Shown here in pieces: positions 1 through 63,205 of a DNA stretch of 64,000 nucleotides. The notes under the pieces are model-generated. The model had not been told where the DNA came from, searched no databases, and saw nothing but the letters and a program-made list of their open reading frames with translations. The translations under genes were made by a program, and so were the position numbers. The stretch is from positions 1 through 64,000 of the forward strand of contig BROI01000023.1 of assembly GCA_027923505.1 (NCBI GenBank). Direction: 5' to 3'. This stretch comes from Mayamaea pseudoterrestris (Eukaryota; Bacillariophyta; Bacillariophyceae; Sellaphorales; Sellaphoraceae). Each line of letters begins with the position of its first letter. Positions within the stretch are counted from its first letter, which is position 1.

Positions 1-3000
1 ATGATGTTGGCACCATTCTGGTGTAATTTGGGCACCTACAGGGCTTGCAGTAGGGGCGTTTGAATGTCATGGCATCTGCGGGCTGAGACTGGTGACAAGT
101 TGTCACCAAATACATTGCCATCCCCTGAGACACTAGCCAAGCCTACCACCCTGTAGCGCAGCTGGAATAATGATGTTGGCACCATTCTTGTGCAATTTGG
201 GCACCTAAAGGGCTTGCTGTAGGGGCGTTTGAATGTCATGGCATCCGTGGGCTTAGACTGGTGACAAGTTGTCACCAAATACATTGCCATCCCCTGAGAC
301 ACCAGCCAAGCCTACCATTTTGTAGCGCAGCCTGGAAAATGATGTTGGCACCATTCTGGTGTATTTTGGGCACCTACAGGGCTTGCTGTAGGGGCGTTTG
401 AATGTCATGGCATCTGCAGGCTGAGACTGGTGACAAGTTGTCACCAAATACATTGCCATCCCCTGAGACACCAGCCAAGCCTACCATCTTGTAGTACAGC
501 TGGAATAATGATGTTGGCACCATTCTGGTGCAATTTGGGCACCTAGAGGGCTTGCTGTAGGGGCATTTGAATGTCATGGCATCTGTGGGCTGAGACTGGT
601 GACAAGTTGTCACCAAATACATTGCCATCCCCTGAGACACCAGCCAAGCCTACCATCTTGCCGCGCAGCCCGAAGAATGATGTTGGCACCATTCTGGTGT
701 AATTTGGGCACCTACAGAGCTTGCTGTAGGGGCATTTGAATGTCATGGCATCTGTGGGCTGAGACTGGTGACAAGTTGTCACCAAATACATTGCCATCCC
801 CTGAGACACCAGCCAAGCCTACCATCTTGTATCGCAGCCGGAATAATGAAGTTGGCACCATTCTGGTGTAATTTGGGCACCTACAGGGCTTGCTGTAGGG
901 ACATTTGAATGTCATGGCATCTGCGGGCTGAGACTGGTGACAAGTTGTCACCAAATACATTGCCATCCCCTGAGACACCAGCCAAGCCTACCATCTTGTA
1001 GCGCAGCCCCAAAAATGATGTTGGCACCATTCTGGTGTAATTTGGGCACCTACAGGGCTTGCTGTAGGGGCGTTTGAATGTCATGGCATCTGCGGGCTGA
1101 GACTGGTGACAAGTTGTCACCAAATACATTGCCATCCCCTGAGACACCAGCCAAGCCTACCATCCTGTAGCGCAGCCTGGAAAATGATGTTGGCACCATT
1201 CTGGTGTAATTTGGGCACCTACAGGGCTTGCTGTAGGGGCGTTTGAATGTCATGGCATCTGCAGGCTGAGACTGGTGACAAGTTGTCACCAAATACATTG
1301 CCATCCCCTGAGACACCAGCCAAGCCTACCATCTTGTAGCGCAGCTGGAATAATGATGTTGGCACCATTCTGGTGTAATTTGGGCACCTACAGGGCTTGC
1401 TGTAGGGACGTTAGAATGTCATGGCAACTGCAGGCTGAGACTGGTGACAAGTTGTCACCAAATACATTGCCATCCCCTGAGACACCAGCCAAGCCTACCA
1501 TCTTGTAGCGCAGCCCAAAAAAGATGTTGGCACCATTCTGGTGTAATTTGGGCACCTACAGGGCTTGCTGTAGGGGCGTTTGAATGTCATGGCATCTGCG
1601 GGCTGAGACTGGTGACAAGTTGTCACCAAATACATTGCCATCCCCTGAGACACCAACCAAGCCTACCATCTTGTAGCGCAGCCTCAATAATGATGTTGGC
1701 ACCATTCTGGTGTAATTTGGGCACCTACAGGGCTTGCTGTAGGGGCGTTTGAATGTCATGGCATCTGCGGGCTGAGACTGGTGACAAGTTGTCACCAAAT
1801 ACATTGCCATCCCCTGAGACACCAGCCAAGCCTACCATCTTGTAGCGCAGCTGGAAAAATGATGTTGGCACCATTCTGGTGTAATTTGGGCACCTACAGG
1901 GCTTGCTGTAGGGGCGTTTGAATGTCATGGCATCTGCGGGCTGAGACTGGTGACAAGTTGTCACCAAATACATTGCCATCCCCTGAGACACCAGCCAAGC
2001 CTACCATCCTGTAGCGCAGCTATAATAATGATGTTGGCACCATTCTGGTGTAATTTGGGCACCTACAGGGCTTGCTGTAGGGGCGTTTGAATGTCATGGC
2101 ATCTGCGGGCTGAGACTGGTGACAAGTTGTCACCAAATACATTGCCATCCCCTGAGACACCAGCCAAGCCTACCATCTTGTAGCGCAGCCTCAAAAATGA
2201 TGTTGGCACCATTCTGGTGTAATTTGGGCACCTACAGGGCTTGCTGTAGGGGCGTTTGAATGTCATGGCATCTGCGGGCTGAGACTGGTGACAAGTTGTC
2301 ACCAAATACATTGCCATCCCCTGAGACACCAACCAAGCCTACCATCTTGTAGCGCAGCTAGAATAATGATGTTGGCACCATTCTGGTGTAATTTGGGCAC
2401 CTACAGGGCTTGCTGTAGGGGCGTTTGAATGTCATGGCATCTGCGGGCTGAGACTGGTGACAAGTTGTCACCAAATACATTGCCATCCCCTGAGACACCA
2501 GCCAAGCCTACCATCTTGTAGCGCAGCCCAAAAAATGATGTTGGCACCATTCTGGTGTAATTTGGGCACCTACAGGGCTTGCTGTAGGGGCGTTTGAATG
2601 TCATGGCATCTGTGGGCTGAGACTGGTGACAAGTTGTCACCAAATACATTGCCATCCCCTGAGACACCAACCAAGCCTACCATCTTGTAGCGCAGCCCAA
2701 AAAATGATGTTGGCACCATTCTGGTGTAATTTGGGCACCTACAGGGCTTGCTGTAGGGGCGTTTGAATGTCATGGCATCTGCGGGCTGAGACTGGTGACA
2801 AGTTGTCACCAAATACATTGCCATCCCCTGAGACACCAGCCAAGCCTACCATCCTGTAGCGCAGCCTGGAAAATGATGTTGGCACCATTCTGGTGTAATT
2901 TGGGCACCTACAGGGCTTGCTGTAGGGGCGTTTGAATGTCATGGCATCTGCGGGCTGAGACTGGTGACAAGTTGTCACCAAATACATTGCCATCCCCTGA

Positions 3001-3788
3001 GACACCAGCCAAGCCTACCATCCTGTAGCGCAGCCCAAAAACCGATGTTGGCACCATTCTGGTGTAATTTGGGCACCTACAGGGCTTGCTGTAGGTGCGT
3101 TTGAATGCCATGGCATCTGTGGGCTGAGACTGGTGACAAGTTGTCACCAAATACATTGCCATCCCCTGAGACACCAGCCAAGCCTACCATCTTGTAGCGC
3201 AGCCCAAAAAATGATGTTGTCACCATTCTGGTGTAATTTGGGCACCTACAGGGCTTGCTGTAGGGGCGTTTGAATGTCATGGCATCTGCGGGCTGAGACT
3301 GGTGACAAGTTGTCACCAAATACATTGCCATCCCCTGAGACACCAGCCAAGCCTACCATCCTGTAGCGCAGCTGGAATAATGATGTTGGCACCATTCTGG
3401 TGCAATTTGGGCACCTAGAGGGCTTGCTGTAGGGGCGTTTGAATGTCATGGCATCCGTGGGCTAAGACTGGTGACAAGTTGTCACCAAATACATTGCCAT
3501 CCCCTGAGACACCAGCCAAGCCTACCATCTTGTAGCGTAGCCAGAATTATGATGTTGGCACCATTCTGGTGTATTTTGGGCACCTACAGGGCTTGCTGTA
3601 GGGGCGTTTGAATGTCATGGCATCTGCGGGCTGAGACTGGTGACAAGTTGTCACCAAATACATTGCCATCCCCTGAGACACCAGCCAAGCCTACCATCCT
3701 GTAGCGCAGCCTCAAAAATGATGATGGCACCATTCTGGTGTAATTTGGGCACCTATAGGGCTTGCTGTAGGGGCGTTTTGAATGTCAT

Positions 3789-6175
3789 GGCATCTGCGGG
3801 CTGAGACTGGTGACAAGTTGTCACCAAATACATTGCCATCCCCTGAGACACTAGCCAAGCCTGCCATCTTGTAGCGCAGCCCAAAAAATGATGTTGGCAC
3901 CATTCTGGTGTATTTTGGGCACCTACAGGGCTTGCTGTAGGGGCGTTTGAATGTCATGGCATCTGTGGGCTGAGACTGGTGACAAGTTGTCACCAAATAC
4001 ATTGCCATCCCCTGAGACACCAGCCAAGCCTACCATCCTGTAACGCAGCTGGAATAATGATGTTGGCACCATTCTGGTGTAATTTGGGCACCTACAGGGC
4101 TTGCTGTAGGGGCGTTTGAATGTCATGGCATCTGCGGGCTGAGACTGGTGACAAGTTGTCACCAAATACATTGCCATCCCCTGAGACACCAGCCAAGCCT
4201 ACCATCCTGTAGCGCAGCCGGAAAAATGATGTTGGCACCATTCTGGTGTAATTTGGGCACCTACAGGGCTTGCTGTAGGGGCATTTGAATGTCATGGCAT
4301 CTGCGGGCTGAGACTGGTGACAAGTTGTCACCAAATACATTGCCATCCCCTGAGACACCAACCAAGCCTACCATCCTGTAGCGCAGCTGGAATAATGATG
4401 TTGGCACCATTCTGGTGTAATTTGGGCACCTACAGGGCTTGCTGTAGGGGCGTTTGAATGTCATGGCATCTGCGGGCTGAGACTGGTGACAAGTTGTCAC
4501 CAAATACATTGCCATCCCCTGAGACACCAGCCAAGCCTACCATCTTGTAGCGCAGCTGGAATAATGATGTTGGTACCATTCTGGTGTAATTTGGGCACCT
4601 ACAGGGCTTGCTGTAGGGGCGTTTGAATGTCATGGCATCTGCGGGCTGAGACTGGTGACAAGTTGTCACCAAATACATTGCCATCCCCTGAGACACCAGC
4701 CAAGCCTACCATCCTGTAGCGCAGCTGGAATAATGATGTTGGCACCATTCTGGTGTAATTTGGGCACTTACAGGGCTTGCTGTAGGGGCGTTTGAATCTC
4801 GTGGCATCTGCGGGCTGTGACTGGTGACAAGTTGTCACCAAATACATTGCCATCCCCTGAGACACCAACCAAGCCTACCATCCTGTAGCGCAGCCCCAAA
4901 AATGATGTTGGCACCATTCTGGTGTATTTTGGGCACCTACAGGGCTTGCTGTAGGGGCGTTTGAATGTCATGGCATCTGCGGGCTGAGACTGGTGACAAG
5001 TTGTCACCAAATACATTGCCATCCCCTGAGACACCAACCAAGCCTACCATCTTGTAGCGCAGCCCAAGAAAAGATGTTAAAGCCATTATGGTGTAATTTG
5101 GGCACCTATGGGGTTTGCTGTAGGGGCGTTTGAATGTCATGGCATCTGCGAGTTGAGACTGCCGACAAGTTGTCACCAAATGCATTGAGATCCCCTGAGA
5201 CACCAGCCAAGCCTACCAACTTGTAGCGCAGCTGGAATAATGATGTTGGCACCATTCTGGTGTATTTTGGGCACCTACAGGGCTTGCTGTAGGGGCGTTT
5301 GAATGTCATGGCATCTGCGGGCTGAGACTGGTGACAGTCAGCAAATACATTGCCATCCACTGAGACACCATCCAAGCCTACCATCTTGTAGCGCAGCTAG
5401 TATAATGATGTAGGCACCATTCTGATGTAATTTGGGCACTTACAGGGCTTGCTGTAGGGGCGTTTGAATGTCATGGCATCTGCGGGCTGAGACTGGTGAC
5501 AAGTTGTCACCAAATACATTGCCATCCCCTGAGACACCAACCAAGCCTACCATCTTGTAGCGCAGCTGGAATAATGATGTTGGCACCATTCTGGTGTAAT
5601 TTGGGCACCTACAGGGCTTGCTGTAGGGGCGTTTGAATGTCATGGCATCGGCGGGTAAAGACTGGTGACAAGTTGTCACCAGATACATTGCCATCCCCTG
5701 AGACACCAACCAAGCCTACCATCTTGTAGCGCAGCTGGAATAATGATGTTGACACCATTCTGGTGTAATTTGGGCACCTACAGGGCTTGATGTAGGGGCG
5801 TTTGAATGTCATGGCATCTGCGGGCTGAGACTGGTGACAAGTTGTCACCAAATACATTGCCATCCCCTGGGACACCAGCCAAGCCTACCATCTGGTAGCG
5901 CAGCCCAAAAAATGATGTTGGCACCATTCTGGTGTAGTTTGGGCACCTACAGGGCTTGCTGTAGGGGCGTTTGAATGTCATGGCATCTGCGGGCTGAGAC
6001 TGCTGACAAGTTGTCACCAAATACATTGCCATCCCCTGAGACACCAGCCAAGCCTACCATCTTGTAGCGCAGCCCAAAAAATGATGTTGGCACCATTCTG
6101 ATGTATTTTGGGCATCTACAGGGCTTGCTGTATGGGCGTTTGAATGTCATGGCTTTTACGGGATGAGACTGGTGA
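3789..6175. repeat. 2387-bp duplicated satellite block, copy A
   Basis: This block is followed immediately by a second copy (6176-8562) with the same order of monomer variants, including unusual ones: a monomer with GTGACAGTCAGC, one with TTAAAGCCATTATGG and one with a TTTTACGGGATGAG end. Every translated frame compared between the two copies was identical. The junction GGTGA/GGCATCTG is out of register with the 169-bp period, which fixes the breakpoint. 2387 bp is 14 monomers plus 21 bp, so the event was not a simple in-register slip. Confidence 0.93.
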
Positions 6176-8562
6176 GGCATCTGCGGGCTGAGACTGGTGA
6201 CAAGTTGTCACCAAATACATTGCCATCCCCTGAGACACTAGCCAAGCCTGCCATCTTGTAGCGCAGCCCAAAAAATGATGTTGGCACCATTCTGGTGTAT
6301 TTTGGGCACCTACAGGGCTTGCTGTAGGGGCGTTTGAATGTCATGGCATCTGTGGGCTGAGACTGGTGACAAGTTGTCACCAAATACATTGCCATCCCCT
6401 GAGACACCAGCCAAGCCTACCATCCTGTAACGCAGCTGGAATAATGATGTTGGCACCATTCTGGTGTAATTTGGGCACCTACAGGGCTTGCTGTAGGGGC
6501 GTTTGAATGTCATGGCATCTGCGGGCTGAGACTGGTGACAAGTTGTCACCAAATACATTGCCATCCCCTGAGACACCAGCCAAGCCTACCATCCTGTAGC
6601 GCAGCCGGAAAAATGATGTTGGCACCATTCTGGTGTAATTTGGGCACCTACAGGGCTTGCTGTAGGGGCATTTGAATGTCATGGCATCTGCGGGCTGAGA
6701 CTGGTGACAAGTTGTCACCAAATACATTGCCATCCCCTGAGACACCAACCAAGCCTACCATCCTGTAGCGCAGCTGGAATAATGATGTTGGCACCATTCT
6801 GGTGTAATTTGGGCACCTACAGGGCTTGCTGTAGGGGCGTTTGAATGTCATGGCATCTGCGGGCTGAGACTGGTGACAAGTTGTCACCAAATACATTGCC
6901 ATCCCCTGAGACACCAGCCAAGCCTACCATCTTGTAGCGCAGCTGGAATAATGATGTTGGTACCATTCTGGTGTAATTTGGGCACCTACAGGGCTTGCTG
7001 TAGGGGCGTTTGAATGTCATGGCATCTGCGGGCTGAGACTGGTGACAAGTTGTCACCAAATACATTGCCATCCCCTGAGACACCAGCCAAGCCTACCATC
7101 CTGTAGCGCAGCTGGAATAATGATGTTGGCACCATTCTGGTGTAATTTGGGCACTTACAGGGCTTGCTGTAGGGGCGTTTGAATCTCGTGGCATCTGCGG
7201 GCTGTGACTGGTGACAAGTTGTCACCAAATACATTGCCATCCCCTGAGACACCAACCAAGCCTACCATCCTGTAGCGCAGCCCCAAAAATGATGTTGGCA
7301 CCATTCTGGTGTATTTTGGGCACCTACAGGGCTTGCTGTAGGGGCGTTTGAATGTCATGGCATCTGCGGGCTGAGACTGGTGACAAGTTGTCACCAAATA
7401 CATTGCCATCCCCTGAGACACCAACCAAGCCTACCATCTTGTAGCGCAGCCCAAGAAAAGATGTTAAAGCCATTATGGTGTAATTTGGGCACCTATGGGG
7501 TTTGCTGTAGGGGCGTTTGAATGTCATGGCATCTGCGAGTTGAGACTGCCGACAAGTTGTCACCAAATGCATTGAGATCCCCTGAGACACCAGCCAAGCC
7601 TACCAACTTGTAGCGCAGCTGGAATAATGATGTTGGCACCATTCTGGTGTATTTTGGGCACCTACAGGGCTTGCTGTAGGGGCGTTTGAATGTCATGGCA
7701 TCTGCGGGCTGAGACTGGTGACAGTCAGCAAATACATTGCCATCCACTGAGACACCATCCAAGCCTACCATCTTGTAGCGCAGCTAGTATAATGATGTAG
7801 GCACCATTCTGATGTAATTTGGGCACTTACAGGGCTTGCTGTAGGGGCGTTTGAATGTCATGGCATCTGCGGGCTGAGACTGGTGACAAGTTGTCACCAA
7901 ATACATTGCCATCCCCTGAGACACCAACCAAGCCTACCATCTTGTAGCGCAGCTGGAATAATGATGTTGGCACCATTCTGGTGTAATTTGGGCACCTACA
8001 GGGCTTGCTGTAGGGGCGTTTGAATGTCATGGCATCGGCGGGTAAAGACTGGTGACAAGTTGTCACCAGATACATTGCCATCCCCTGAGACACCAACCAA
8101 GCCTACCATCTTGTAGCGCAGCTGGAATAATGATGTTGACACCATTCTGGTGTAATTTGGGCACCTACAGGGCTTGATGTAGGGGCGTTTGAATGTCATG
8201 GCATCTGCGGGCTGAGACTGGTGACAAGTTGTCACCAAATACATTGCCATCCCCTGGGACACCAGCCAAGCCTACCATCTGGTAGCGCAGCCCAAAAAAT
8301 GATGTTGGCACCATTCTGGTGTAGTTTGGGCACCTACAGGGCTTGCTGTAGGGGCGTTTGAATGTCATGGCATCTGCGGGCTGAGACTGCTGACAAGTTG
8401 TCACCAAATACATTGCCATCCCCTGAGACACCAGCCAAGCCTACCATCTTGTAGCGCAGCCCAAAAAATGATGTTGGCACCATTCTGATGTATTTTGGGC
8501 ATCTACAGGGCTTGCTGTATGGGCGTTTGAATGTCATGGCTTTTACGGGATGAGACTGGTGA
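6176..8562. repeat. 2387-bp duplicated satellite block, copy B
   Basis: Second copy of the block at 3789-6175. It ends with the same TTTTACGGGATGAGACTGGTGA sequence as copy A, after which unique sequence (GAACTTCACAC) begins. Near-identity means either a very recent duplication or gene-conversion event, or an assembly duplication. Confidence 0.93.
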
Positions 8563-8798
8563 GAACTTCACACATAGACTGTCGAACAGTTGTGCCAACA
8601 ATTAAGGAGGTAAGTGATGGCTCTCTGAGAGCATACTCTTAAAGTATAGCAATGTGTTTGGGATAGCTAACATGTTTATATAATTAGGGGTCATTGCATG
8701 CACCACAACCATGACATCATCTAAGTCGCAGCTGCAGTCCAAGTATTGTCGTGAGATATGTCCGGATATATCCTACTGCAACCTACTCCATTGTATTA
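8563..8798. other. Array-edge spacer with a dispersed module
   Basis: Non-coding sequence between two satellites. About 8610-8680 (GATGGCTCTCTGAG followed by AATGTGTTTGGGATAG) reappears in diverged form at about 10021-10090, so it belongs to a dispersed or formerly tandem repeat unit. No gene seen. Confidence 0.6.
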
Positions 8799-9835
8799 CA
8801 GTGTGTGGCCTTCAACAACTACCCCCACTAATCTTGTTCCATGAGTTCTGTTCTGGCTATGCTTAAGGACACATATTCAATAAGATTGGTGCATAACAAT
8901 CATTCCTGGCTCACATGTAGCATCAGTTGTTGGGAAGGGCAAAGATCATCACAGTAACCAGCTCCTTGGTGCTACAGTGTGTGGCCTTCAAAGACTACCC
9001 CCAATAGTCTTGTTCCATGAATCCTGTTCTTGCTATCCTTGAAGCCACATATGCGGTGAGATTGGTGCATAACAGTCACTCCCAGCTCACGTGTAGCATC
9101 ACTTGTTTGGGAGGGCAGAGGTCCACACAGTAACCAGCTCCATGGTGCTACAGTGTGTGGCCTTCAAGGACTACCCTTAAAATTATTGTTCCATGAATTC
9201 TGTTTGGGCTATGCTTAAGAACACGTAGGTCATGAGATTGGTGCATAACAGTCATTCCCAGCTCATGTGTAGCATCAGTTGTTTGGGAGGGCAAAGATCC
9301 ACACAGTAACCAGCTACACGGTGCTACAGTGTGTGGCCTTCAACGCCTACCCCCAATAGTCTTGTTCCATGAAGTCTGTTCTGGCTATCCTTGAAGACAC
9401 TTATGCGGTGAGATTGGTGTATAACAGTCACTCCCAGCTCACGTGTAGCATCAGTTGTTTGGGAGTGCAAAGATCCACACAGTAACCACCTAGACGGTGC
9501 TACATGTGTGGCCTTCAACGACTACCCCCAATAGTCTTGATCCATGAATTCTGATGTGGCTATCCTTGGGGATACATTTGCAATGAGATTGGTGGATAAC
9601 AATCATACCTGGCACACGTGTAGCATCAGTTGTTGGGGAGGGCAAAGATCCACACAGTAGCCAGCTACACGGTGCTACAGTGTGTGGCCTTCAAAGACTA
9701 CCCCCAATAGTCTTGTTCCATGAAGTCTGTTCTGGCTATCCTTGGGGACACGTATGCGGTGAGATTGGTGCATAACAGTCACTCTCAGCTCACATGTAGC
9801 ATCAGTTGTTTGGGAGGGCAGACGTCCACACTTTA
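8799..9835. repeat. 176-bp tandem repeat (about 6 copies)
   Basis: The anchor CAGTGTGTGGCCTTCAA recurs at 8799, 8975, 9151, 9327, 9503 (one base lost) and 9678, a period of 176 bp. Copies share GATTGGTGCATAACA and GTGTAGCATCAGTTGTT segments and differ by roughly 5-10 percent by eye, so they are older or less homogenised than the 169-bp array. There is no convincing coding potential. Confidence 0.92.
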
Positions 9836-10304: not shown

Positions 10305-10915
10305 AACTCTGTCAACTTCTAGCTATCAAGTTATACCTCTGGTCGTTGGAGTGGGTTATGGCAGCCACTGACTGTGGACAAGCCTGGGGCCACAAAATTC
10401 AGGCAGTCCTACTGGCAAAACATGGAAAACTAGGTGGGCTAATGATGAATGCACTGCACTTTCAAAATCATGAAACAATGCCTGTCAACTGCTAGCTATC
10501 AAGTTATACCCTCTCTGGCCAATGGAGTGGGTCATGGCAGCCAGCTACTGTGGACAAGCCTGGGGTCACGAATTCAGGCAGTCCTACTGGCAGAACATGG
10601 AAACTAGATGGGCTAGTGATGAATGCATTCCACTTTCTACATCATGAAACAATGCCTGTCAACTGCCAGCTATCAAGTTATACCTCTCTGGCCGTTGGAG
10701 TGGGTTTATGGCAGCCAGCTACTGAGGACAAGCCTGGGGCCACGTAATTCAGGCAGTCCTACGGGCAGAACTTGGAGACAAGATGGACTAGCAATGAATG
10801 CATTGCACTTTTTACATAATGATACAATGCCTGTCAACTGCCAGCTATCAAATTATACCTCTCTGGCCGTTGGAGTGGGTCATGGCAGCCAGCAACTGTG
10901 GACAAGCCTGGGAAA
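10305..10915. repeat. 175-bp tandem repeat (about 3.5 copies)
   Basis: The motif GAGTGGGT followed by ATGGCAGCCA recurs at about 10349, 10525, 10698 and 10873, a spacing of 173-176 bp. Each copy also carries AGGCAGTCCTAC, ATGAATGCA and GCCTGTCAACTGC. The array runs directly into decayed 169-bp-type monomers at about 10915. Confidence 0.88.
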
Positions 10916-30889: not shown

Positions 30890-33430
30890 AGGCCATACCC
30901 ATGGTGTGAGCCTCCAGGCAGTCCGTTTTGCACCATTTCAGACCATCCTCATGTCAATGGCACACCCTGGACATGTTTTGCCTGATTCATTGGGTTGTTG
31001 GGTGGCCAGGGCATGGGGCGTTTGACAGGTCAGAATCTGCAACTTGTGGTGCTGGCCATACCCACATTGGAGGCCGTACCCATGGTGTCAGCCTCCAGGC
31101 AGTCCTTTTTGCACCGTTTGAGACTCTGCACCTGTCAATGGCATACCCTGGACATGTTTTGCCTGACTCATTGGGTATTTGGGTGGCCAGGGCATGGGGC
31201 ATTTGAGAGGTCAGAATCTACAACTTGTGGTGTTGGCCATACCCACAGTGGAGGTGGGCCGTACCCATGGTGTCAGCCTCCAGGCAGTCCTTTTTGCACC
31301 ATTTGAGACTCTGCACCTGTCAATGGCATACCCTGGACATGTTTTGCCTGACTCACTGGGATGTTGGGTGGCCAAGGGACGGGGCATTGTAGTGGTATGA
31401 TTCCATAATTTGGGGTGTTGGCCACACCCAGCCTGCAGACCATTCCATGGTGTAGGCCTCCCGGCAGTCCGTTTTGCACCATTTCAGACCATCCTCATGT
31501 CAATGGCACACCCTGGACATGTTTTGCCTGACTCATTGGGTATTTGGGTGGCCAAGGCATGGGGCGTTTGACAGGTCAGAATCTGCAACTTGTGGTGCTG
31601 GCCATACCCACATTGGAGGCCGTACCCATGGTGTCAGCCTCCAGGCAGTCCTTTTTGCACCGTTTGAGACTCTGCACCTGTCAATGGCATACCCTGGACA
31701 TGTTTTGCCTGACTCATTGGGTATTTGGGTGGCCAGGGCATGGGGCCTTTGAGAGGTCAGAATCTACAACTTGTGGTGTTGGCCATACCCACAGTGGAGG
31801 TGGGCCGTACCCATGGTGTCAGCCTCCAGGCAGTCCTTTTTGCACCATTTGAGGCTCTGCACCTGTCAATGGCATACCCTGGACATGATTTGCCTGACTC
31901 ACTGGGATGTTGGGTGGCCAGGGCACGGGGCATTGTAGTGGTATGATTCCATAATTTGGGGTGTTGGCCACACCCAGCCTGCAGACCATTCAATGGTGTA
32001 GGCCTCCCGGCAGTCCGTTTTGCACCATTTCAGACCATCCTCATGTCAATGGCACACCCTGGACATGTTTTGCCTGATTCATTGGGTTGTTGGGTGGCCA
32101 GGGCACGGGGCATTGTAGTGGTATGATTCCATAATCTGGGGTGTTGGCCACACCCAGCCTGCAGACCATTCCATGGTGTAGGCCTCCAGGCAGTCCGTTT
32201 TGCACCATTTCAGACCATCCTCATGTCAATGGCACACCCTGGACATGTTTTGCCTGACTCATTGGGTTGTTGGGTGGCCAGGGCACGGGGCATTGTAGTG
32301 GTATGATTCCATATTTCGGGGTGTTGGCCACACCCAGCCTGCAGACCATTCCATGGTGTAGGCCTCCAGGCAGTCCATTTTGCACCATTTCAGACCATCC
32401 TCATGTCAATGGCACACCCTGGACATGTTTTGCCTGACTCATTGGGTTGTTGGGTGGCCAGGGCATGGGGCATCCTAGTGGTATGATTCCATAATTTGGG
32501 GGTGTTGGCCACACCCAGCCTGCATACCATTCCATGGTGTAGGCCTCCAGGCAGTCCGTTTTGCACCATTTCAGACCATCCTCATGTCAATGGCACACCC
32601 TGGACATGTTTTGCCTGACTCATTGGGTTGTTGGGTGGCCAGGACACGGGGCATTGTAGTGGTATGATTCCATAATTTGGGGTGTTGGCCACACCCAGCC
32701 TGCATACCATTCCATGGTGTAGGCCTCCAGTCAGTCCGTTTTGCACCATTTCAGACCATCCTCATGTCAATGGCACACCCTGGACATGTTTTGCCTGACT
32801 CATTGGGTTGTTGGGTGGCCAGGGCACGGGGCATTGTAGTGGTATGATTCCATAATTTGGGGTGTTGGCCACACCCTGCCTGCACACCAATCCATGGTGT
32901 AGGCCTCCAGTCAGTCCGTTTTGCACCATTTCAGACCATCCTCATGTCAATGGCACACCCTGGACATGTTTTGCCTGACTCATTGGGTTGTTGGGTGGCC
33001 AGGGCACGGGGCATTGTAGTGGTATGATTCCATAGTTTAGGGTGTTGGCCACACCCAGCCTGCAGACCATTCCATGGTGTAGGCCTCCAGGCAATCCATT
33101 TTGCACCATTTCAGACCATCCTCATGTCAATGGCACACCCTGGACATGTTTTGCCTGACTCATTGGGTTGTTGGGTGGCCAGGGCATGGGGCATCCTAGT
33201 GGTATGATTCCATAATTTGGGGTGTTGGCCACACCCAGCCTGCAGACCATTCCATGGTGTAGGCCTCCAGGCAGTCCTTTTTGCACCATTTGAGACTCTG
33301 CACCTGTCAATGGCATACCCTGGACTGGTTTTGCCTGACTCATTGGGTTGTTGGGTGGCCAGGGCATGGGGCATCTGACAGGTAAGAATCTAAAACTTGC
33401 GGTGTTGGCCATACCCACAGTGTACCGGTA
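30890..33430. repeat. About 181-bp satellite array (about 14 monomers)
   Basis: Monomers of 180-184 bp share CCTCCAGGCAGTCC, TTTTGCACCATTT, GTCAATGGCA followed by CACCCTGGACATG, TTTTGCCTGA and GGGTGGCCAGGGCA. Two monomer types occur: one with CAGACCATCCTCATG and TGTAGTGGTATGATTCC, the other with GAGACTCTGCACCTG and GAGGTCAGAATCT. 30925-31470 and 31471-32016 form a 546-bp three-monomer higher-order unit present twice, followed by a run of the first type. The array lies 169 bp upstream of the bestrophin ATG. Frames within it are repeat translations. Confidence 0.95.
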
Positions 33431-41576: not shown

Positions 41577-41649
41577 GCACCATTAGCTCAGTAGGTAGAG
41601 CGCAAGACTGTTAATCTTGAGGCCATTGGTTCGATCCCAATATGGTGCG
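41577..41649 (+). tRNA. trnN-GUU: tRNA-Asn (GTT)
   Basis: 73 nt. The acceptor GCACCAT pairs with ATGGTGC (41642-41648) and the discriminator is G. The D-arm is GCTC/GAGC, the anticodon stem CAAGA/TCTTG with loop CTGTTAA gives anticodon GTT, and the T-arm is ATTGG/CCAAT with TTCGATC. No intron and no encoded CCA. A TTTT run at 41655-41658 could terminate Pol III. It starts 173 bp upstream of the divergent AAA-TPR ATG. Confidence 0.97.
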
Positions 41650-41742
41650 CACCCTTTTGGTTCTGTTTTAATGCTTTTCTATTGCTGTAGTAAGAAATAG
41701 AATAACGCAACAACAGCTCTATCATTGTAATGTCGCAACTAA

Positions 41743-49581: not shown

Positions 49582-52500
49582 TTATAGTTGACGCGTAGGA
49601 GGTTTTCGGACGGCAGCGTTGCGGGCCGGAACTCGTTTCTGGCCACGGCGGCGCCGAGGAAGCGACTCGGACCCACTCGATGATAGTACAGATCCAACCG
49701 AAACAGAATAATCTTCCGACTCGTAGGATGTTACACTTCCACCCGTCTCCCAACTTTCCAGCGACTCAAAATCTTCGTAAAGATCCGCCCCTCCTTCGCG
49801 CGGCTGTCCATTGTGCTGAAGCTGCGACCTTGCCCCAAACCGCTTGCGAAGCTTGCCTTGACTTGTTGCGGTCCCCGTGGCCGGTTTTTGAATGGTACGC
49901 CCCTGTCCCATAGAGCTCGTCACTGCATCCCAGTCATGTTCGGAAATGTAACGGTCGAGCTCCGTCTGTGCCCATTCACCCTTGGCTTGTGGCGCCATCT
50001 TGGCTTTTGAGCGCGATCCACCCGGAAGAGCGGCAGCCGATCCCAACTTTTCGACACTCGTAGTAGCTTCATCAAGAACAGCACACCGTTGACTGCCATT
50101 GTGGTTGCTGTAATCCAACATATAATCAGCTTCGCTCAAGGCAGAAATTGAATCACCTGGATGGGAATGAACATCTTCGGTGTCGCCGTCCTCAGCATCA
50201 CCAAGATAGTTGATGGGCGTGACTGTCCCTTCCGAAAAGGTTTTAGTTGCAGCCGGGCTTGGACTTCTAGTAGTGCCCATTAGCCGCGCATGCAAAAACG
50301 GCTTGCGTGCTGTGACCAACCGATTCTTCACATCAAATGTTTGAGCCTTGCAGCCGCTAGAGTTGAACTCTTCCACAACAAGCTCACGAGAACGAGCAAC
50401 TGGGACTTTGCAGTGGATCTTGTCGACTGAAATAACCGGATTAGCCGACATTTCGTGGTCTAAGTGCTCAGAGTCGCGGTTCCTTTGCAGAAGCACTTGC
50501 TGCCTGGCGGATGAGAGACTGCTAGTCTCAGATCCGCTGCGTTTCTTCTTGTCGGGATTAAAAGTATTTTTGACATGGACAGTTGACTCAGTAATATTGC
50601 TTTGGTGGCTGATCTGCGTCACATGAGTCTGCACTCTGGTCATGGCAATTGGCGATGTTGGCACAACTGGCTTCGAGCCGACTGAAACTGTAGACGTAGG
50701 ATACTTCGGCGCGAGCGGTGGCTTTACTTGGAGGACCGTCGGTTCTGGGCTTGAAACTTTTTCAAGAGGCTCGTCAAATGGTTTCGACTCGGAAATATTC
50801 AACAGATGCGATAAAAGCTGGTCTTCTTGGCCGTCGAATTGCGACAGTAAACGAGTGACACTTGGGCCTTCTGCAGGAGCCAATGTCTTCAGAATGGCGA
50901 CAATGTCTTCCTTGACTGCCCATAGTCGGCGTTCGTACTCACTTCCTGGTGTGTCCGATCGTTCAACCGTGACTTCGGGCGATTCTAGTACCTTGGCCAC
51001 ATCCTTTGGTGTAGAAACTCTCGCCTCGTCGGATGGTCTTTCAGTCATCTCGTCGACTGCGTAGTCGGACTTCGCACACTGGGTGATTTCAATTATCGCA
51101 GCTTGATTCTTGTCGGCTTTAGCTTCCAGCAGTTTTTCGGACATCTTCTCGGATCTGGCTGTCTGTACTTTGGTGTTCGGCTGCACAATCTCGTCTTCCG
51201 GCGGTTCAGCCCAAGTTGTTGCGCGTGTCTCACGATTGTACCAGTAAGTTCGTCCAGAACTTGCACAGATTGCAGTCTTCCAAACTCGCTTTTTCGTTGA
51301 CAAAAAATCGTCCCGTTCTGTTACCGAAGAATGAGTCACTGGTAACATACTCTGCTTTGCGATTGTCATAGCGTGCATGTCGTCGACGTCCTTGAGCACA
51401 CTTTGGGAGACGTTCTGATTCTGACAGCTCAGTGTCCAGGGCCTGCTGGGCAGCTTGACGAATGCTTTCTTCGGCACAATGAATCTTGTTCGAGCTTTCA
51501 TGGTTGCCACAAGAGAATGGCTCGTGTACGCTTTAGTCGTCGTCTCAGTTGATGAAACAAACTGCATGTCCTGTCCGTCAGTGCTCATCATGCAAGTTCT
51601 GTTTTCCTCGTTACTAGACCGGCTTGCAATCTCCCCCTGCTCTTCCTCTATGTCGTCGTCGCTGTATGAATCTTCCTCCTCGACAATGCCTTGCAACGAC
51701 GACCTCTCGTGGCTTGTGCACTCCTCGCCAAGCAAATCGTCCGACGACAGGAACTTGTCAGGATTCTGCAGCCCAGGGACTCTGACGAATGCGTCCGTTT
51801 CGATTGCTGGTTCCTCCTTGACGGGCGTTAACCGGTGGCTAAGCAGGTTACCGAGCAAGTGTTTGTAACGCGATTCCTTGTTAGACTTGCTCAAGAGTCT
51901 TTCCTCAGCAACCGAAGGAAACATGGTTGAATCCGCATCGTCGTCTTCCTTCTTTTCCTCCTCTGTTTCACTGCAACCTAATAGCTTGAGCTCCTTGTTC
52001 GCCGCTTGTGAAAACGGCACCGGAAAATCGTCATCGTCCGAGTCGTCGTTCACATCCATGGCGCTTTCCATTTGAGTTGGCTCCGGAATTAATTCCAGGC
52101 TAATGCTTCCTTCCTCATCGCCATGTGACGAGCACGATTCAGTGGGAACCACGTTGAGATTCGCTGCGGATGCCTTTCTCCTGGACGAGCGTCGGCGACG
52201 AAACGGCCAAAACAGCTTTAGCTTTGGCGATGGTGTTGTTTCCTCCAAAATCATTTCAAAAGTTTCCACCATGGGTGGTCCTTGAGCAGCTGGTGCTGAT
52301 AGTAACGGTGATGTCTTAGAAGAGTGACTCGATTCTGTTGGTGGCTCCGCAATGTCATTTGTGCCACCATTGCATGGAATGAGCCATTTATCCGCAGCAT
52401 CATCTCCGCTTGTAAAGGATGGAGCATTCATTTTGTCTTCTGCCGACGCAGCTTCCACTTCATCGTCCTGCGAAAAGGTTTCGCTTACATCGTCTGGCAT

Positions 52501-53463
52501 ATGCTTTGTCTCCGTACTTGTGATTGTTGTTACTTCGTTGGACGCAGACTTGTCCATCTCCTCGGGCAGCTGATTCGCTAGCTGCGCTGGGGAAATTGTC
52601 TGCTTGACGGGTTGCATTTCCGAAATGTCACTTACGGCTGCGGAAGTAATGGCATTGCCGAAGCTACACGGCAAGGCATTGGATGCACCTTGCTTGCAAA
52701 TGGTCCAGTGCTTTTCAAAGAGTGATTCGCCAATGCCATCTTCTTTTTCGTCTGGGTTTGTCAATGCGGTCTCCTTGCAAACTGCTCCAGAAACGTCATC
52801 AATGTTGGTCGTCTCCTTGTCTTGATCAGAATACAAGAGCGCCTTGTCCACCATGGACAGCAAGTTTTGCACCATGGCCGTGGACGTTTCACCAAGACTC
52901 GTGTACAGTTCATAGTCTCTCAAAGTTCCTTTGTCATCGTCATCGTCGTCACCACCATGGCCCAAGGCGTAGCAGCTCATGAGGTTGTTTCGCGTCGAGC
53001 AAAGGTAGGCGGTATTGCTTGGCTGAAAGCACAATCCGGGTGGATCGACTGATACGGAGGGAGTAATGGTGTCGACGCTGGGACTAGGCAATGATGGGGT
53101 GAAGAGCGAATCATCATCGCCGTTATATTCTTGCTGATTGTGATCAGCTGCCGTCTTTATGCTGCTCGCCGGCATGTTGCAATGCTGATGCTGCTGCTTC
53201 TGCGGAGACGGCGTCAATGGTGGCGTCGGAGGAGTGTAGCAAGTTCCTTTGCTTGTGTTTGCCTTGACTGGTGTCGCGTATTGCGCCATGCAGTTGTAAC
53301 GCTGGTTTGCTGGCTCATAATCGTCGGCATGGTAGCTGTCGGACCGGTTGGTTCGCGCGGCTCCTGCTTCTGCTCCCATTGGCTCCAAGAGAGAGACGGT
53401 ATCGTCAAATTCCTTGGCGCCGTTGCTGCTACTGTGGCCGTTGGTAAAGATCAAGGTTCTCAT
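49582..53463 (-). CDS. Large disordered protein with one WW domain
   Basis: 1293 residues from the first in-frame ATG at 53463. A single WW domain near 725-757 has the spacing VWKTA...GRTYWYNRETRATTWAEPP with both Trp and the Tyr-Tyr-like YWYN core. WW domains bind Pro-rich ligands such as PPxY. The rest is low-complexity: acidic, Ser/Thr/Pro-rich segments, a basic RRRRSSRRK stretch at about 424-432 and an Arg-rich C-terminus. Coiled-coil or enzyme domains are not evident. It probably acts as a scaffold or adaptor. It is transcribed away from the DDX47 gene. Confidence 0.75.
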   Translation of the reverse strand: MRTLIFTNGHSSSNGAKEFDDTVSLLEPMGAEAGAARTNRSDSYHADDYEPANQRYNCMAQYATPVKANTSKGTCYTPPTPPLTPSPQKQQHQHCNMPASSIKTAADHNQQEYNGDDDSLFTPSLPSPSVDTITPSVSVDPPGLCFQPSNTAYLCSTRNNLMSCYALGHGGDDDDDDKGTLRDYELYTSLGETSTAMVQNLLSMVDKALLYSDQDKETTNIDDVSGAVCKETALTNPDEKEDGIGESLFEKHWTICKQGASNALPCSFGNAITSAAVSDISEMQPVKQTISPAQLANQLPEEMDKSASNEVTTITSTETKHMPDDVSETFSQDDEVEAASAEDKMNAPSFTSGDDAADKWLIPCNGGTNDIAEPPTESSHSSKTSPLLSAPAAQGPPMVETFEMILEETTPSPKLKLFWPFRRRRSSRRKASAANLNVVPTESCSSHGDEEGSISLELIPEPTQMESAMDVNDDSDDDDFPVPFSQAANKELKLLGCSETEEEKKEDDDADSTMFPSVAEERLLSKSNKESRYKHLLGNLLSHRLTPVKEEPAIETDAFVRVPGLQNPDKFLSSDDLLGEECTSHERSSLQGIVEEEDSYSDDDIEEEQGEIASRSSNEENRTCMMSTDGQDMQFVSSTETTTKAYTSHSLVATMKARTRFIVPKKAFVKLPSRPWTLSCQNQNVSQSVLKDVDDMHAMTIAKQSMLPVTHSSVTERDDFLSTKKRVWKTAICASSGRTYWYNRETRATTWAEPPEDEIVQPNTKVQTARSEKMSEKLLEAKADKNQAAIIEITQCAKSDYAVDEMTERPSDEARVSTPKDVAKVLESPEVTVERSDTPGSEYERRLWAVKEDIVAILKTLAPAEGPSVTRLLSQFDGQEDQLLSHLLNISESKPFDEPLEKVSSPEPTVLQVKPPLAPKYPTSTVSVGSKPVVPTSPIAMTRVQTHVTQISHQSNITESTVHVKNTFNPDKKKRSGSETSSLSSARQQVLLQRNRDSEHLDHEMSANPVISVDKIHCKVPVARSRELVVEEFNSSGCKAQTFDVKNRLVTARKPFLHARLMGTTRSPSPAATKTFSEGTVTPINYLGDAEDGDTEDVHSHPGDSISALSEADYMLDYSNHNGSQRCAVLDEATTSVEKLGSAAALPGGSRSKAKMAPQAKGEWAQTELDRYISEHDWDAVTSSMGQGRTIQKPATGTATSQGKLRKRFGARSQLQHNGQPREGGADLYEDFESLESWETGGSVTSYESEDYSVSVGSVLSSSGSESLPRRRRGQKRVPARNAAVRKPPTRQL

Positions 53464-54717
53464 ATCAGAAGTTTCTGGGACTGCTTTTGTTTCTATCAAG
53501 CGAGTGTCAAGAATGAATGATGCAATGTGTTGCGTAACTCTGTCGAGCAAGCAAGCAAATCAAGAAGAAGTCTGGCTCACAAAGAGGCAGTCAAGAACGA
53601 TGCTTGCTTAATTCGAAACAAGACTGGGTGATTGTACCGTCTCTTTCGAGCAAAGTCTCTGCCGGTCGTAACAAAGACAGAGGTCCGTCTTCTCTTTGTC
53701 AAGGATATTGGTGTCGGAAGTGCATTGCATCCAAGTCCGACCCGGCCGGCTCGTTTAGAAATTTGGAAGCAACGCCGACTCGCAATCTTCGGTGATGGCG
53801 CGACAAATTCAGCTACTATACTATAACAACAGCAAGGAGTATATTTGTAGAGGGCCGCTGATATTCTACTACAAACTTACAGTGTAATGATGATGAAAAA
53901 GGTGTAGCAAAGCAGGTTCGAGAAAAACTGCGGTTGGCGGTTTTAAATGACGGCAGACAATCAAGTTTACAGTTAATGCGTGAAAATAATCGCAACATTT
54001 CTAATTCAAAACTGTATTCGTGCATTCAAGGCACACAATGCACGCATGCGCTTCAGCCATCTGCTGTACAACGAAGTAGATAGCTTCAGCGGCGTTACGT
54101 TCGTACTGTGGTCGACTTGAACGACATGTTCAAGAGCGCAGGATTGCCAAGCTCGCCGACAATTATCATTCAAAGACAAGTTGCACGACGTCAAAGCATT
54201 GACAGCCTTCAAGCGGTCCAAAGCGTTGCTTTGATTTTAGAGTGCATAACTGCCGCGTGTAGTGTGGGCGCCAATGAAGCGTCATCCTGCACGTTTCAGT
54301 TAAACATGTGCATGGCGAAAGTTTTGAAACGTGTCGTTGCTGCTGCTGTTGCTGTAGTAATTGACTGGCTGAAACGCTGCTATCGACGCCTCCCGATAGT
54401 GCAATGACTGTCGTCTTTGAATCTCAGGTGGCATTTGTTGCGCGCGTATATATGTAGCAAGTGTTCGGTGGAAACTTGAGCAGCATGCTGATTAGCTGAT
54501 GGCTCGTCAAGACGATGGCGACGATGTCTTTTCGCATGCAATTACACAGAATCAGCTCCGGCTACCGTCCTTCTCAATGCAATCATGATGACAGGCAACA
54601 GCGTTACCTACTTCCTTTGATTGAGACAATCATCTGTCGAGCAACCAGAACGACGAGATCGTACGAAACGAGAGTGCCAGTGATCTACCGTAAAAATTAT
54701 GCCGTGAAAACTGTTGT
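53464..54717. other. Divergent intergenic region
   Basis: About 1.25 kb upstream of both the WW gene and the repeat array. A 99-codon plus-strand frame at 54108 starts with GTG and shows no domain. A TATA-like GTATATATG lies at about 54446. GAAACGAGAGTGCCAGTG at about 54665 is a first, isolated relative of the array monomer that follows. Confidence 0.5.
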
Positions 54718-54719
54718 TC

Positions 54720-55045
54720 GAAACGAGTGCCAGTGAAAACTGCGTCATAAGGCATTAGCACGAAACGAGTGCCATTGTCAATTACGTCATATGGCAATAG
54801 TATGAAACGGGTGCCAGTGTCAATTACGTCACAAGGCTATATTACGAAACGAGTGCCAGTGTCAATTACGTCACAAGGCATCGAAACGAGTGCCAGTGAA
54901 AACTGCGTCATAAGGCATTAGCACGAAACGAGTGCCATTGTCAATTACGTCATATGGCAATAGTATGAAACGGGTGCCAGTGTCAATTACGTCACAAGGC
55001 TATATTACGAAACGAGTGCCAGTGTCAATTACGTCACAAGGCATT
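54720..55045. promoter_or_regulatory. 42-bp-phased CRE-like motif array upstream of DDX47
   Basis: Eight monomers, each with GAAACGAGTGCCA followed by a CRE-like hexamer. Hexamers start at 54742 (GCGTCA), 54784, 54826 and 54868 (ACGTCA), 54905 (GCGTCA), 54947, 54989 and 55031 (ACGTCA). Spacing is 42, 42, 42, 37, 42, 42, 42 bp. 54720-54882 and 54883-55045 are two 163-bp blocks. 42 bp is four turns of B-DNA, so sites face the same side. ACGTCA and the complement of GCGTCA (TGACGC) match elements reported in diatom CO2/cAMP-responsive promoters bound by bZIP factors. The last site is 94 bp before the DDX47 ATG. Function is inferred. Confidence 0.8.
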
Positions 55046-55129
55046 TCGCCTCGGAAAGCGGACGAAAGACGGTCGGCCCTCGGCCTCCATTCATTTTCAC
55101 GGAACTAACCGACAACGACAACTTTCGCC

Positions 55130-56689
55130 ATGGCGGACCAAGAGGACGACCTAACTCGCAAGCTTAGCAGTAGTGGCGAAGCTATCAAAGAAGATGACGA
55201 TGTACCTGATGATGATTCGGCTACCGATACTTTAACCAAGCAAACCTTTCAAAGCTTGTCGCTCGTCGAACCACTCTGCAGGGCATGCGATGCTCTGGGA
55301 TGGAAGACGGCGACGCAGATACAGGCTCAGGTACTACCAGAAGCTTTCGCTGGAAATGACATGATTGGCTTGGCGGAAACTGGATCTGGCAAAACGGGAG
55401 CTTTTGTCTTACCCATATTACAAGGCTTGCTCACATCCGCAACGGCATCCAAGCATCAAACGCGGGCGCTCATTTTATGTCCGACGCGTGAATTGGCCTT
55501 TCAAATTCTGGAAGTTGTTCAGGCGCTTGGGCAAACCATTGCGGCAACCTCCACGTGCATCGTGGGAGGAGTCGATCGAGCGAGTCAGGCAATTGCATTG
55601 GCGCGAAACCCGCACATTGTCATCGCAACGCCAGGTCGACTGATTGATCACTTGCAGGATACCAAGGGATTTACACTTCGTCATGTACAGTATTTAGTCT
55701 TGGATGAAGCTGACAGAATGTTATCGATGGATTTTGAACAGGAGCTTCATCGCATTCTCGATAACTTGCCAGCCTGCCACGGTGAAGGCTCCAATGGCGT
55801 TGGCCGACAAACGTTTTTGTTTTCCGCCACTATGACTTCCCAAGTTGCCAAGCTGCAGCGAGCCAGTTTGAGGAGCACGGCCGTTCGCATTCAAATCTCA
55901 GAGCACAAGTTCGTGACGCCAAAGCAACTCAAGCAATTTTACATGTTTCTTCCGGCAAAGTACAAGGACTGCTACTTGGTTTATCTACTTTCACAACCAG
56001 ATCACTTGGCCGGCAAGTCCATCTTGGTCTTTGGCGCGACATGCAACAATGTTCAGCGCTTGGCCCTCATGCTTCGCCAGCTTGGACTACCTGCCATGGC
56101 ATTGCACGGACAAATGAGTCAGCCGCAGCGACTTGGCGCCTTGCAAAAGTTTCGGGCTGGTCAGCGGCAGATTTTGGTATGCACCGATGTTGCGAGTCGC
56201 GGATTGGACTTGCCGGCGGTCGATAGTGTCATTCACTACGACTTGCCTGGCCATGGAAAGGAGTATATTCATCGAACGGGTCGAACGGCGCGTGCCGGCA
56301 AGTCGGGTTTGGCGATTGCCATGGTGACACAGTATGATGTTGAAATATATCAGCGACTAGAAGGCTTGCTGGGCACCAAGCTGCCCGAATACAACATGGC
56401 TGCGACCGAGGAGACGGTGCTGATACTGCTTGAGCGAGTGAGTGACGCGCAGCGACTAGCAACGCGCGAGTTGAAGGAACAGTTGTCGTCGCGTGATCGA
56501 AAGGGAGGCGGTGGTCGACGCAAGCGACGAAGTGGAGATGATGGCGAGGAAGAAGATAATGGAGGGATGGAGAAGATGTTGCAGAAGGAACTGGATCGAC
56601 GTTACAAGGGCGGTTCGGGTGGATCTGGAGGAGCGTTAAAGAATCAACGTGGTTCTGGGAAGCAGAGTAAAAAATATCGGCAAAAGTAA
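55130..56689 (+). CDS. DDX47: DEAD-box RNA helicase, DDX47/RRP3 type
   Basis: 519 residues from GCCATGG at 55130. All helicase motifs are present: Q-motif region with F40 and TQIQ (about 62-65), motif I AETGSGKT (about 83-90), PTREL, TPGRLIDH, motif II DEAD (192-195), SAT (234-236), DVASRGLD and HRTGRTARAG. VLDEADRMLSMDFEQE matches the DDX47/Rrp3 subfamily signature (MDFE after the DEAD helix). The basic Gly-rich C-terminus probably contacts RNA. The family acts in the nucleolus in early 18S pre-rRNA processing. The promoter carries the 42-bp CRE-like array. It converges with the next gene across a 69-bp gap. Confidence 0.93.
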   Translation: MADQEDDLTRKLSSSGEAIKEDDDVPDDDSATDTLTKQTFQSLSLVEPLCRACDALGWKTATQIQAQVLPEAFAGNDMIGLAETGSGKTGAFVLPILQGLLTSATASKHQTRALILCPTRELAFQILEVVQALGQTIAATSTCIVGGVDRASQAIALARNPHIVIATPGRLIDHLQDTKGFTLRHVQYLVLDEADRMLSMDFEQELHRILDNLPACHGEGSNGVGRQTFLFSATMTSQVAKLQRASLRSTAVRIQISEHKFVTPKQLKQFYMFLPAKYKDCYLVYLLSQPDHLAGKSILVFGATCNNVQRLALMLRQLGLPAMALHGQMSQPQRLGALQKFRAGQRQILVCTDVASRGLDLPAVDSVIHYDLPGHGKEYIHRTGRTARAGKSGLAIAMVTQYDVEIYQRLEGLLGTKLPEYNMAATEETVLILLERVSDAQRLATRELKEQLSSRDRKGGGGRRKRRSGDDGEEEDNGGMEKMLQKELDRRYKGGSGGSGGALKNQRGSGKQSKKYRQK

Positions 56690-63064: not shown

Positions 63065-63113
63065 TAGTAGATAAGAATATTTGTATTTTAACGTTTCACT
63101 TAATCTGATCTGT

Positions 63114-63205
63114 CATTTTCGTTTGTCTACAATTTGCATTCTTTCTTTCGATTGCTGCTCATTTTCGTTTGTCTACAATTTGCATTCTTTCTTTCAATTG
63201 CTGCT
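63114..63205. repeat. 46-bp tandem duplication over a stop codon
   Basis: TCATTTTCGTTTGTCTACAA and what follows begins at 63113 and again at 63159. The right-hand copy encodes the last residues and stop (TGA, complement of 63159-63161) of the minus-strand oxidoreductase. The left-hand copy lies in its 3' flank and differs by one base (TTCGATTG versus TTCAATTG). Confidence 0.9.

What the first reader, a model, noticed from the sequence alone, without database searches (positions are those of the whole stretch)
54720..55045. Helically phased array of eight CRE-like sites in a helicase promoter
Eight ACGTCA/GCGTCA hexamers sit at a 42-bp period (one 37-bp step) in two 163-bp blocks, each paired with GAAACGAGTGCCA. 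42 bp equals four DNA turns, so all sites in a block face one side, ideal for cooperative bZIP binding. The two hexamer forms match the ACGTCA/TGACGT and TGACGC elements described in diatom CO2/cAMP-responsive promoters (recalled from the literature). The DDX47 gene starts 94 bp later, hinting that ribosome biogenesis is tied to this signal. The second conserved box may bind a partner factor.
Basis: partly seen in the sequence, partly recalled or inferred. Interest (0 to 1): 0.75.

Follow-up and report, generated by a model that had tools for sequence, protein, structure and literature searches.

The report
Dispersed promoter repeat arrays in diatom
The repeat in front of this helicase gene is one of about a hundred or more similar repeat arrays in a diatom genome, which in the sample studied mostly sit where two neighbouring genes start back to back, so it looks like a widely copied gene-control module rather than a switch special to this gene.

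Summary
In detail: window 54718-55043 is two perfect 163-bp copies of four units (42,42,42,37 bp), each with one RCGTCA hexamer and one GAAACGRGTGCCA box, ending 86 bp before the DDX47 start codon. But it belongs to a dispersed family. The 30.6-Mb genome holds 599 exact and 1,194 near (up to 3 mismatches) unit matches, none for the reversed control; I counted 117 distinct places on 27 of 41 contigs. In 34 sampled arrays, 46 of 53 called neighbouring gene ends are starts, and 17 of 21 arrays with both neighbours called lie in divergent promoters, against 28% of background intergenic length (p about 1e-6). Array edges tend to one phase, and the scanned flanking genes are functionally mixed. A promoter link is thus supported genome-wide; a specific tie to ribosome biogenesis or CO2/cAMP is not, and helical phasing is weak. 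Best reading: a lineage-specific, copied cis-regulatory module, a composite of a bZIP-type site and a partner box. Regulation itself is inferred: no expression or binding data were available. The main rival is a selfish minisatellite tolerated in open divergent promoters.

The parts
54665..54713 (+). decayed remnant unit(s): GAAACGAGAGTGCCAGTG (54665-54682) and GTGAAAACTG (54704-54713)
   Evidence: read from sequence; D2 family copy at 54661-54672
54718..54880 (+). block 1: four units (42,42,42,37 bp)
   Evidence: TRF period 163, 100% identity; units listed
54881..55043 (+). block 2: perfect copy of block 1
54720..54732 (+). A box (GAAACGAGTGCCA), first of eight (54720, 54762, 54804, 54846, 54883, 54925, 54967, 55009)
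54742..54747 (+). B box GCGTCA (reverse complement TGACGC), first of eight; the others at 54784, 54826, 54868 (ACGTCA), 54905 (GCGTCA), 54947, 54989, 55031 (ACGTCA)
55130..56689 (+). DDX47/RRP3-like DEAD-box RNA helicase, one uninterrupted ORF of 519 aa
   Evidence: Pfam DEAD and Helicase_C; homologues named DDX47/RRP3
49582..53550 (-). divergent neighbour: large ORF with a weak WW-domain match, head-to-head with DDX47
   Evidence: WW 26.2 bits, just under the Pfam cut-off of 26.9; called as an upstream start

Best explanation
The array is one copy of a dispersed 42-bp minisatellite family that sits in promoters, mainly between head-to-head gene pairs, of a diatom. SHOWN in the 34 sampled arrays: units of the form GAAACGAGTGCCAGTG-NNAANT-RCGTCA-NNAGGCAATAGTAY, 4-10 per array in all but two, usually entered through a spacer (often with RCGTCA before it) and usually ending without the spacer after the last RCGTCA; placement next to gene starts. 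INFERRED: each unit is a composite binding element, a bZIP-type site (TTACGTCA or TGCGTCA) plus a second factor on the 16-bp A box, so an array gives many cooperating sites that help open or drive the promoter region shared by both neighbours. INFERRED: the family spread by copying of arrays into open divergent promoters, and arrays exchange units by recombination, which keeps units alike genome-wide. The DDX47 array grew by a 163-bp tandem duplication, recent to judge by its identity (unless an assembly artefact).
For: Genome counts: 653+541 matches with up to 3 mismatches and 0 for the reversed control; 328+271 exact; 117 distinct places on 27 contigs, typed from the capped lists (not each checked to be a full array). 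Placement: 46 of 53 called sides (of 68) are gene starts, expected share 0.553, p=1e-6; 17 of 21 arrays with both sides called are divergent, against 28.4% of background intergenic length, p=9e-7; looser and stricter gene calls give 18 of 23 (p=7e-6) and 13 of 16 (p=8e-7). Edges: left consensus over 34 arrays acGtCA.aAGGCAATAGTAc (capitals 60% or more, small letters 45-60%); on the right the spacer after the last unit is not found in 26 of 32 arrays. Constraint: rare variants 1.6% per site in the A box (33/2032) and 2.5% in the B box (19/762) against 3.3% in the spacer (59/1778), A+B against spacer p=0.002. Unit exchange (weak): a duplicated aconitase locus on C6 keeps nine units in both copies while the array centre differs by 18%, against 0.5% (left flank), 6% (right flank) and 10% (start of the coding region). 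bZIP_1 proteins: 14 matches over the cut-off, one with a stop inside.
Against: No expression, chromatin or binding data. The scanned flanking genes share no theme (21 of 40 had a Pfam match), which a dedicated regulon would not predict. The constraint signal is modest: the unit finder demands 28-mer similarity and would miss about 11% of units mutated at the spacer's rate, and the linker (28/762) varies as much as the spacer. The right edge at CGTCA is partly made by the search pattern, which ends there; the left RCGTCA is only a majority feature. The 34 arrays were not a random draw from the 117 places: best matches to the window array plus contig order. The coding model was trained partly on loci that also flank arrays. 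No exact unit lies in C1:1-2.24 Mb although that stretch holds ordinary genes (an LHC gene at C1:257 kb), so promoters in general do not need the module. Seven called sides are gene ends. In the aconitase pair the 10% difference at the start of the coding region leaves room for plain old divergence plus conversion of the left part, and no donor was found.
Confidence: 0.52

Rival explanations
1. Selfish or neutral minisatellite: arrays were copied (insertion or ectopic recombination) into open chromatin of divergent promoters and persist because they do little harm there; they bind nothing of consequence.
For: Divergent gaps with arrays are longer (seven: 384-2252 bp) than without (18, median 397 bp), as an added insert would give. 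Mixed genes. C1:1-2.24 Mb has no exact unit. Within-array unit distance (6.2 of 42) is little below between-array distance (7.5) once the two homogenised arrays are dropped, as expected of copied arrays.
Against: Edges tend to one phase and the boxes vary less than the spacer; gaps that are not divergent, also non-coding, hold only 4 of the 21 arrays with both sides called.
Confidence: 0.3
2. Boundary or nucleosome-clearing element: arrays bind an abundant general factor that separates or opens head-to-head housekeeping promoters (as recalled for yeast Reb1/Abf1/Rap1 or fly BEAF-32; no call), without signal-dependent regulation.
For: Strong divergent bias; neighbours include likely housekeeping genes: a tubulin-family protein, L19, guanylate kinase, aconitase, a TELO2-like protein and Snf7.
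Against: 18 of 25 divergent gaps lack an array even in the stretches read, some of which were fetched for their arrays; no protein evidence.
Confidence: 0.12
3. CO2/cAMP regulon: the hexamers act as CCRE elements and array genes respond together to CO2 through cAMP and a bZIP factor.
For: Hexamers identical to CCRE1-3 (PMC7378808 and PMC4915529 passages); bZIP genes present.
Against: Six-base match only; I recognised no carbon-concentrating gene among the 21 of 40 scanned neighbours with a Pfam match; the 16-bp A box is about as conserved as the B box (non-consensus 3.1% and 2.8%) and I know of no CCRE counterpart for it.
Confidence: 0.05

Closest known systems
Diatom CO2/cAMP-responsive elements CCRE1-3 of the PtCA1/PtCA2 promoters (Ohno 2012, Tanaka 2016, as cited in PMC7378808 and PMC4915529; passages of these two read)
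   Same: Same hexamers TGACGT/ACGTCA/TGACGC upstream of genes in a diatom.
   Different: There: three hexamers between -86 and -42 of carbonic anhydrase promoters. Here: a 42-bp composite unit with a 16-bp partner box, in arrays before many unrelated genes.
Promoter minisatellites that multiply an activator site, e.g. the apple MYB10 R6 promoter insertion (mentioned in the start of the abstract of PMC11321683, seen in the listing; details recalled)
   Same: Tandem array of a site-bearing unit inside a promoter; unit number could tune expression.
   Different: There a single locus; here about a hundred or more dispersed places, with edges that tend to one phase, mostly in divergent promoters in the sample.
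Dispersed short satellites in euchromatin (fly 1.688, Tribolium TCAST1; recalled, no call)
   Same: Short tandem arrays scattered near genes.
   Different: Those have longer units and other placement (recalled); here a 42-bp unit concentrated next to gene starts.
MITEs or transposon ends with internal tandem repeats (P. gingivalis example PMC4596501, title and abstract start seen in the listing)
   Same: Dispersed copies; some right ends carry an inverted copy of the spacer.
   Different: No shared interior of 400 bp or more between paired arrays, no target-site duplication evident by eye, no transposase looked for or seen.

Membership tests
CCRE/CRE promoter element | core hexamer TGACGT/ACGTCA/TGACGC | tested here: met
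   eight hexamers; definitions
CCRE/CRE promoter element | position -86 to -42 from the transcription start | not testable with these tools
   no TSS data; in the window the hexamers lie 94-388 bp before the ATG
CCRE/CRE promoter element | response to CO2 or cAMP through a bZIP factor | not testable with these tools
   only the presence of bZIP_1 matches shown
Generic satellite unrelated to promoters | placement independent of gene starts | tested here: not met
   46 of 53 called sides (of 68) are starts, expected 0.553, p=1e-6
Large transposon with subterminal repeats | homologous interior between paired arrays | tested here: not met
   the 21-23 kb between inverted arrays on C1, C3 and C4 share no match of 400 bp or more with each other at E<=1e-10
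MITE | terminal inverted repeats | tested here: inconclusive
   inverted spacer within 60 bp of the right end at p<=0.05 in 7 of 32 arrays, clear in about 3; in the left flank 1 of 32
MITE | target-site duplication | tested here: inconclusive
   edges looked at by eye only; none evident
Promoter minisatellite | tandem array of 10-100-bp units in a promoter | tested here: met
   promoter meaning the gap before called gene starts, no TSS data
Promoter minisatellite | unit number or sequence affects expression | not testable with these tools
   no expression data

The most novel reading that the evidence does not exclude
A diatom lineage spread one prefabricated cis-regulatory cassette, arrays of a bZIP site and an unknown 16-bp partner box, into roughly one to two hundred mostly divergent promoters, bringing a few hundred unrelated genes under one factor pair, with ectopic unit exchange keeping the cassettes alike.
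Probability: 0.33. Interest if true: 0.82.

Novelty: new variant of a known kind. Interest (0 to 1): 0.58.

Why it matters
If the arrays regulate, they would be a clear case of a minisatellite family wiring many genes to one regulator, in a group (diatoms) where few cis-elements are known (my general knowledge). The 16-bp A box could be used to fish out an undescribed factor, and natural differences in unit number, together with the duplicated aconitase locus, allow direct tests. If they do not regulate, they still mark where new DNA can settle in a compact genome.

Tried and rejected
Large-transposon idea: arrays in inverted pairs 21-23 kb apart (C1, C3, C4) suggested element ends, but the interiors share no match of 400 bp or more; rejected. 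Orientation towards one gene: a first look suggested that units point at a downstream gene, but most arrays with both sides called lie in divergent promoters, so both sides are starts and orientation carries no clear meaning; rejected. Functional theme: 40 neighbour proteins scanned (39 of the 52 listed, plus one from L038), 21 with a Pfam match, no theme. Terminal inverted repeats: only some right ends; left open. Structural RNA: Rfam none at gathering scores in 54400-55200, and block 1 as single-strand DNA folds no better than shuffles, z=0.09. Presence elsewhere: exact unit pattern, 0 in viral contigs and 0 in genome contigs (prokaryotes); other diatom genomes could not be searched. Donor of the diverged tract in the aconitase pair: outside that locus nothing matched better than 92%, and nothing better than 89% over the full tract, among the 40 of 207 and 40 of 205 candidates scored; no donor found. 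Replication-origin orientation: considered from array order on C1, C3, C4 and C15, not tested. Literature: looked for such a repeat; (the string GAAACGAGTGCCA) held 0 papers, and in the listings of 22 (20 of 608 shown), (2 of 2; 10 of 15 shown) no title or abstract start describes it. Searches asked other questions. I cannot say that it is not in print, only that these searches of the held library did not show it.

Full report
Observation. The array is as described. Eight RCGTCA hexamers lie at 54742-55036 with steps 42,42,42,37,42,42,42 and eight GAAACGRGTGCCA boxes at 54720-55021. TRF finds a 163-bp unit twice at 100% identity, so the eight sites are four sites duplicated once; the 37-bp step is the junction, which puts block 2 about half a helical turn off block 1. 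Decayed unit remnants lie just to the left. The ORF at 55130-56689 is a DEAD-box helicase (Pfam) whose relatives include many named DDX47/RRP3. The organism names shown among the 120 listed relatives are nearly all diatoms (Entomoneis, Fragilaria, Nitzschia, Seminavis, Epithemia and others); the row ranked after the window's own protein carries a sandfly name at 51% identity. With 53 chlorophyll-binding matches, some of them exon pieces, I take the genome for a diatom's; the species is not known to me.

Genome-wide family. The unit pattern has 1,194 matches with up to three mismatches (653 + and 541 -) and none for the reversed control; 599 are exact. Place lists are capped, so I pooled six searches and counted 117 distinct places, more than 1.5 kb apart, on 27 of 41 contigs. 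This is a lower bound for places; some rest on a single listed unit and were not checked to be arrays. On C1 to C4:421 kb the first 100 exact units listed fall in 31 such places, so the whole genome may hold about 190 (rough estimate). The exact pattern is absent from viral contigs and from the prokaryote collection.

Anatomy. I compared 34 arrays, those that I held; of the duplicated C8 pair one copy was used (L048, L049). Interior units give GAAACGAGTGCCAGTG-(AAAACT or TCAATT)-RCGTCA-NNAGGCAATAGTAY. Two linked subtypes dominate: TCAATT-A (56 of 142 units) and AAAACT-G (37 of 142), with AAAACT-A at 21. Of 226 steps 184 are 42 bp and 29 are 43 bp; the other 13 range from 31 to 82 bp, and the three longest span a decayed unit. 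Edges: to the left of the first unit the consensus runs acGtCA.aAGGCAATAGTAc (capitals 60% or more, small letters 45-60%) and nothing beyond. To the right, the spacer after the last unit is not found in 26 of 32 arrays. The conserved CGTCA at the right end is partly a product of the search pattern, which ends there, so the informative points are the spacer on the left and its lack on the right. Arrays cut at random phase would show a whole spacer on the right in about two thirds of cases (my arithmetic). Two arrays are followed at once by an inverted array (L050, L051), and some right ends carry an inverted spacer: 7 of 32 at p<=0.05, about three of them clear. Beyond the edges I found no common sequence, apart from duplicated loci (C8 pair, 99.9% over 2.9 kb; C6 pair).

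Placement. Gene calls came from an in-frame hexamer model trained on ORFs of 400 aa or more from the window and the 10-kb loci. In gaps without arrays (193 kb read, 80 genes called) divergent gaps are 28% of intergenic length, tandem 54% and convergent 18%. Of the 68 array sides 53 had a called neighbour, and 46 of these are gene starts (expected 0.553, p=1e-6). Of 21 arrays with both neighbours called 17 are divergent, 3 have a start on the downstream side only, and 1 is convergent, the duplicated C8 locus (p=9e-7 for the divergent share). Looser and stricter settings give 18 of 23 and 13 of 16. One array (L056) was left uncalled by the script although an epimerase ORF starts 75 bp from it; it counts as missing. 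Divergent gaps with an array are longer (384-2252 bp, seven) than those without (median 397 bp, 18), as if the array were added DNA. In the window the array lies between DDX47 and a divergent large ORF with a weak WW match.

Neighbours. Of 40 flanking proteins scanned 21 had a Pfam match at E<=0.001, some under the curated cut-off: nuclease-fold, GCIP, AhpC/TSA, tubulin, TPR, guanylate kinase, SAP, a Rossmann oxidoreductase, TELO2-like, ribosomal L19, glycosyltransferase, WD40, ATPase N-terminus, aconitase, SDE2, hydrolase, patatin, ribulose-phosphate epimerase, Snf7 and others. No theme that I can see; DDX47 and L19 are the only ones I would link to ribosomes.

Constraint and turnover. With the homogenised array L052 dropped and only block 1 of the window used, rare variants (under 5% at a position) are 33/2032 in the A box, 28/762 in the linker, 19/762 in the B box and 59/1778 in the spacer; A+B against spacer gives p=0.002. 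The unit finder tolerates six mismatches in the 28-mer and would miss about 11% of units mutated at the spacer's rate, a bias towards conserved boxes. Units within an array differ by 6.2 of 42 bases and between arrays by 7.5 with two homogenised arrays dropped (4.9 and 7.3 with them), so arrays are only somewhat more alike inside than across the genome. A natural test is the duplicated aconitase locus on C6 (987 kb and 1012 kb, proteins 99% identical). Both copies have a nine-unit array in the same place (second copy counted by eye). Differences are 2/370 in the left flank, 0/113 in the first array part, 31/170 in the array centre, 6/105 in the last part, 13/217 in the right flank and 22/220 at the start of the coding region. 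The centre has changed more than its surroundings while unit number held, which fits unit exchange with other arrays. But no donor was found, and old divergence with recent conversion of the left part, or plain mutation, is not excluded.

Mechanism. Best supported: a copied promoter module whose unit joins a bZIP-type site and a 16-bp partner box. Shown: the family, its placement in the sample, its edges and a modest excess of conservation in the boxes. Inferred: binding, cooperation, effect on transcription and mode of spread. The hexamers equal the diatom CCRE1-3 (passages in PMC7378808 and PMC4915529), and the genome has 14 bZIP_1 matches over the cut-off, but six bases are too few to name the signal. 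The main rival is a selfish repeat tolerated in open divergent promoters; the added-DNA look of the gaps, the mixed genes and the uneven spread speak for it. No exact unit lies in C1:1-2.24 Mb; the chance is 6e-5 if the seven places on C1 were spread evenly, a figure worked out after seeing the gap, and units with mismatches there are not excluded.

Verdict. A real and more interesting thing than the one locus suggested, but not the special ribosome-CO2 switch proposed. New variant of a known kind (promoter minisatellite); function to be tested.

Noticed in passing
window 1-8562: 169/338-bp satellite array of about 50 copies at the contig start; the same family occurs inside C3 (656359-660583; consensus 94.7% identical).
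   Followed up: partly
window 8797-9831, 10309-10912, 30899-33417: Further satellites of 176, 175 and 180 bp; their consensus units gave no match to the 169-bp family at E<=1e-5.
   Followed up: no
G000 C1:1-2.24 Mb: No exact unit in the first three quarters of the largest contig although it carries ordinary genes (an LHC gene at 257 kb); exact units are regionally uneven.
   Followed up: partly
L069 and L053: Duplicated aconitase B locus with both arrays kept at nine units but the array centre diverged.
   Followed up: yes
L050 1580-1918, L051 1545-1883: Two pairs of adjoining inverted arrays in which the units point towards each other.
   Followed up: partly
L012, L039, L057 right edges: Inverted spacer (TACTATTGCC or a close variant) near the array end, like a terminal inverted repeat.
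   Followed up: partly
L048/L049 (C8:37-50 kb): 12-kb-spaced duplication, 99.9% identical over 2.9 kb, carrying an array; the called neighbours of the second copy are gene ends, an exception to the promoter rule.
   Followed up: no
window 63113-63205: 46-bp repeat twice at 97%, just after a large ORF.
   Followed up: no
window 41577-41650: tRNA-Asn.
   Followed up: no
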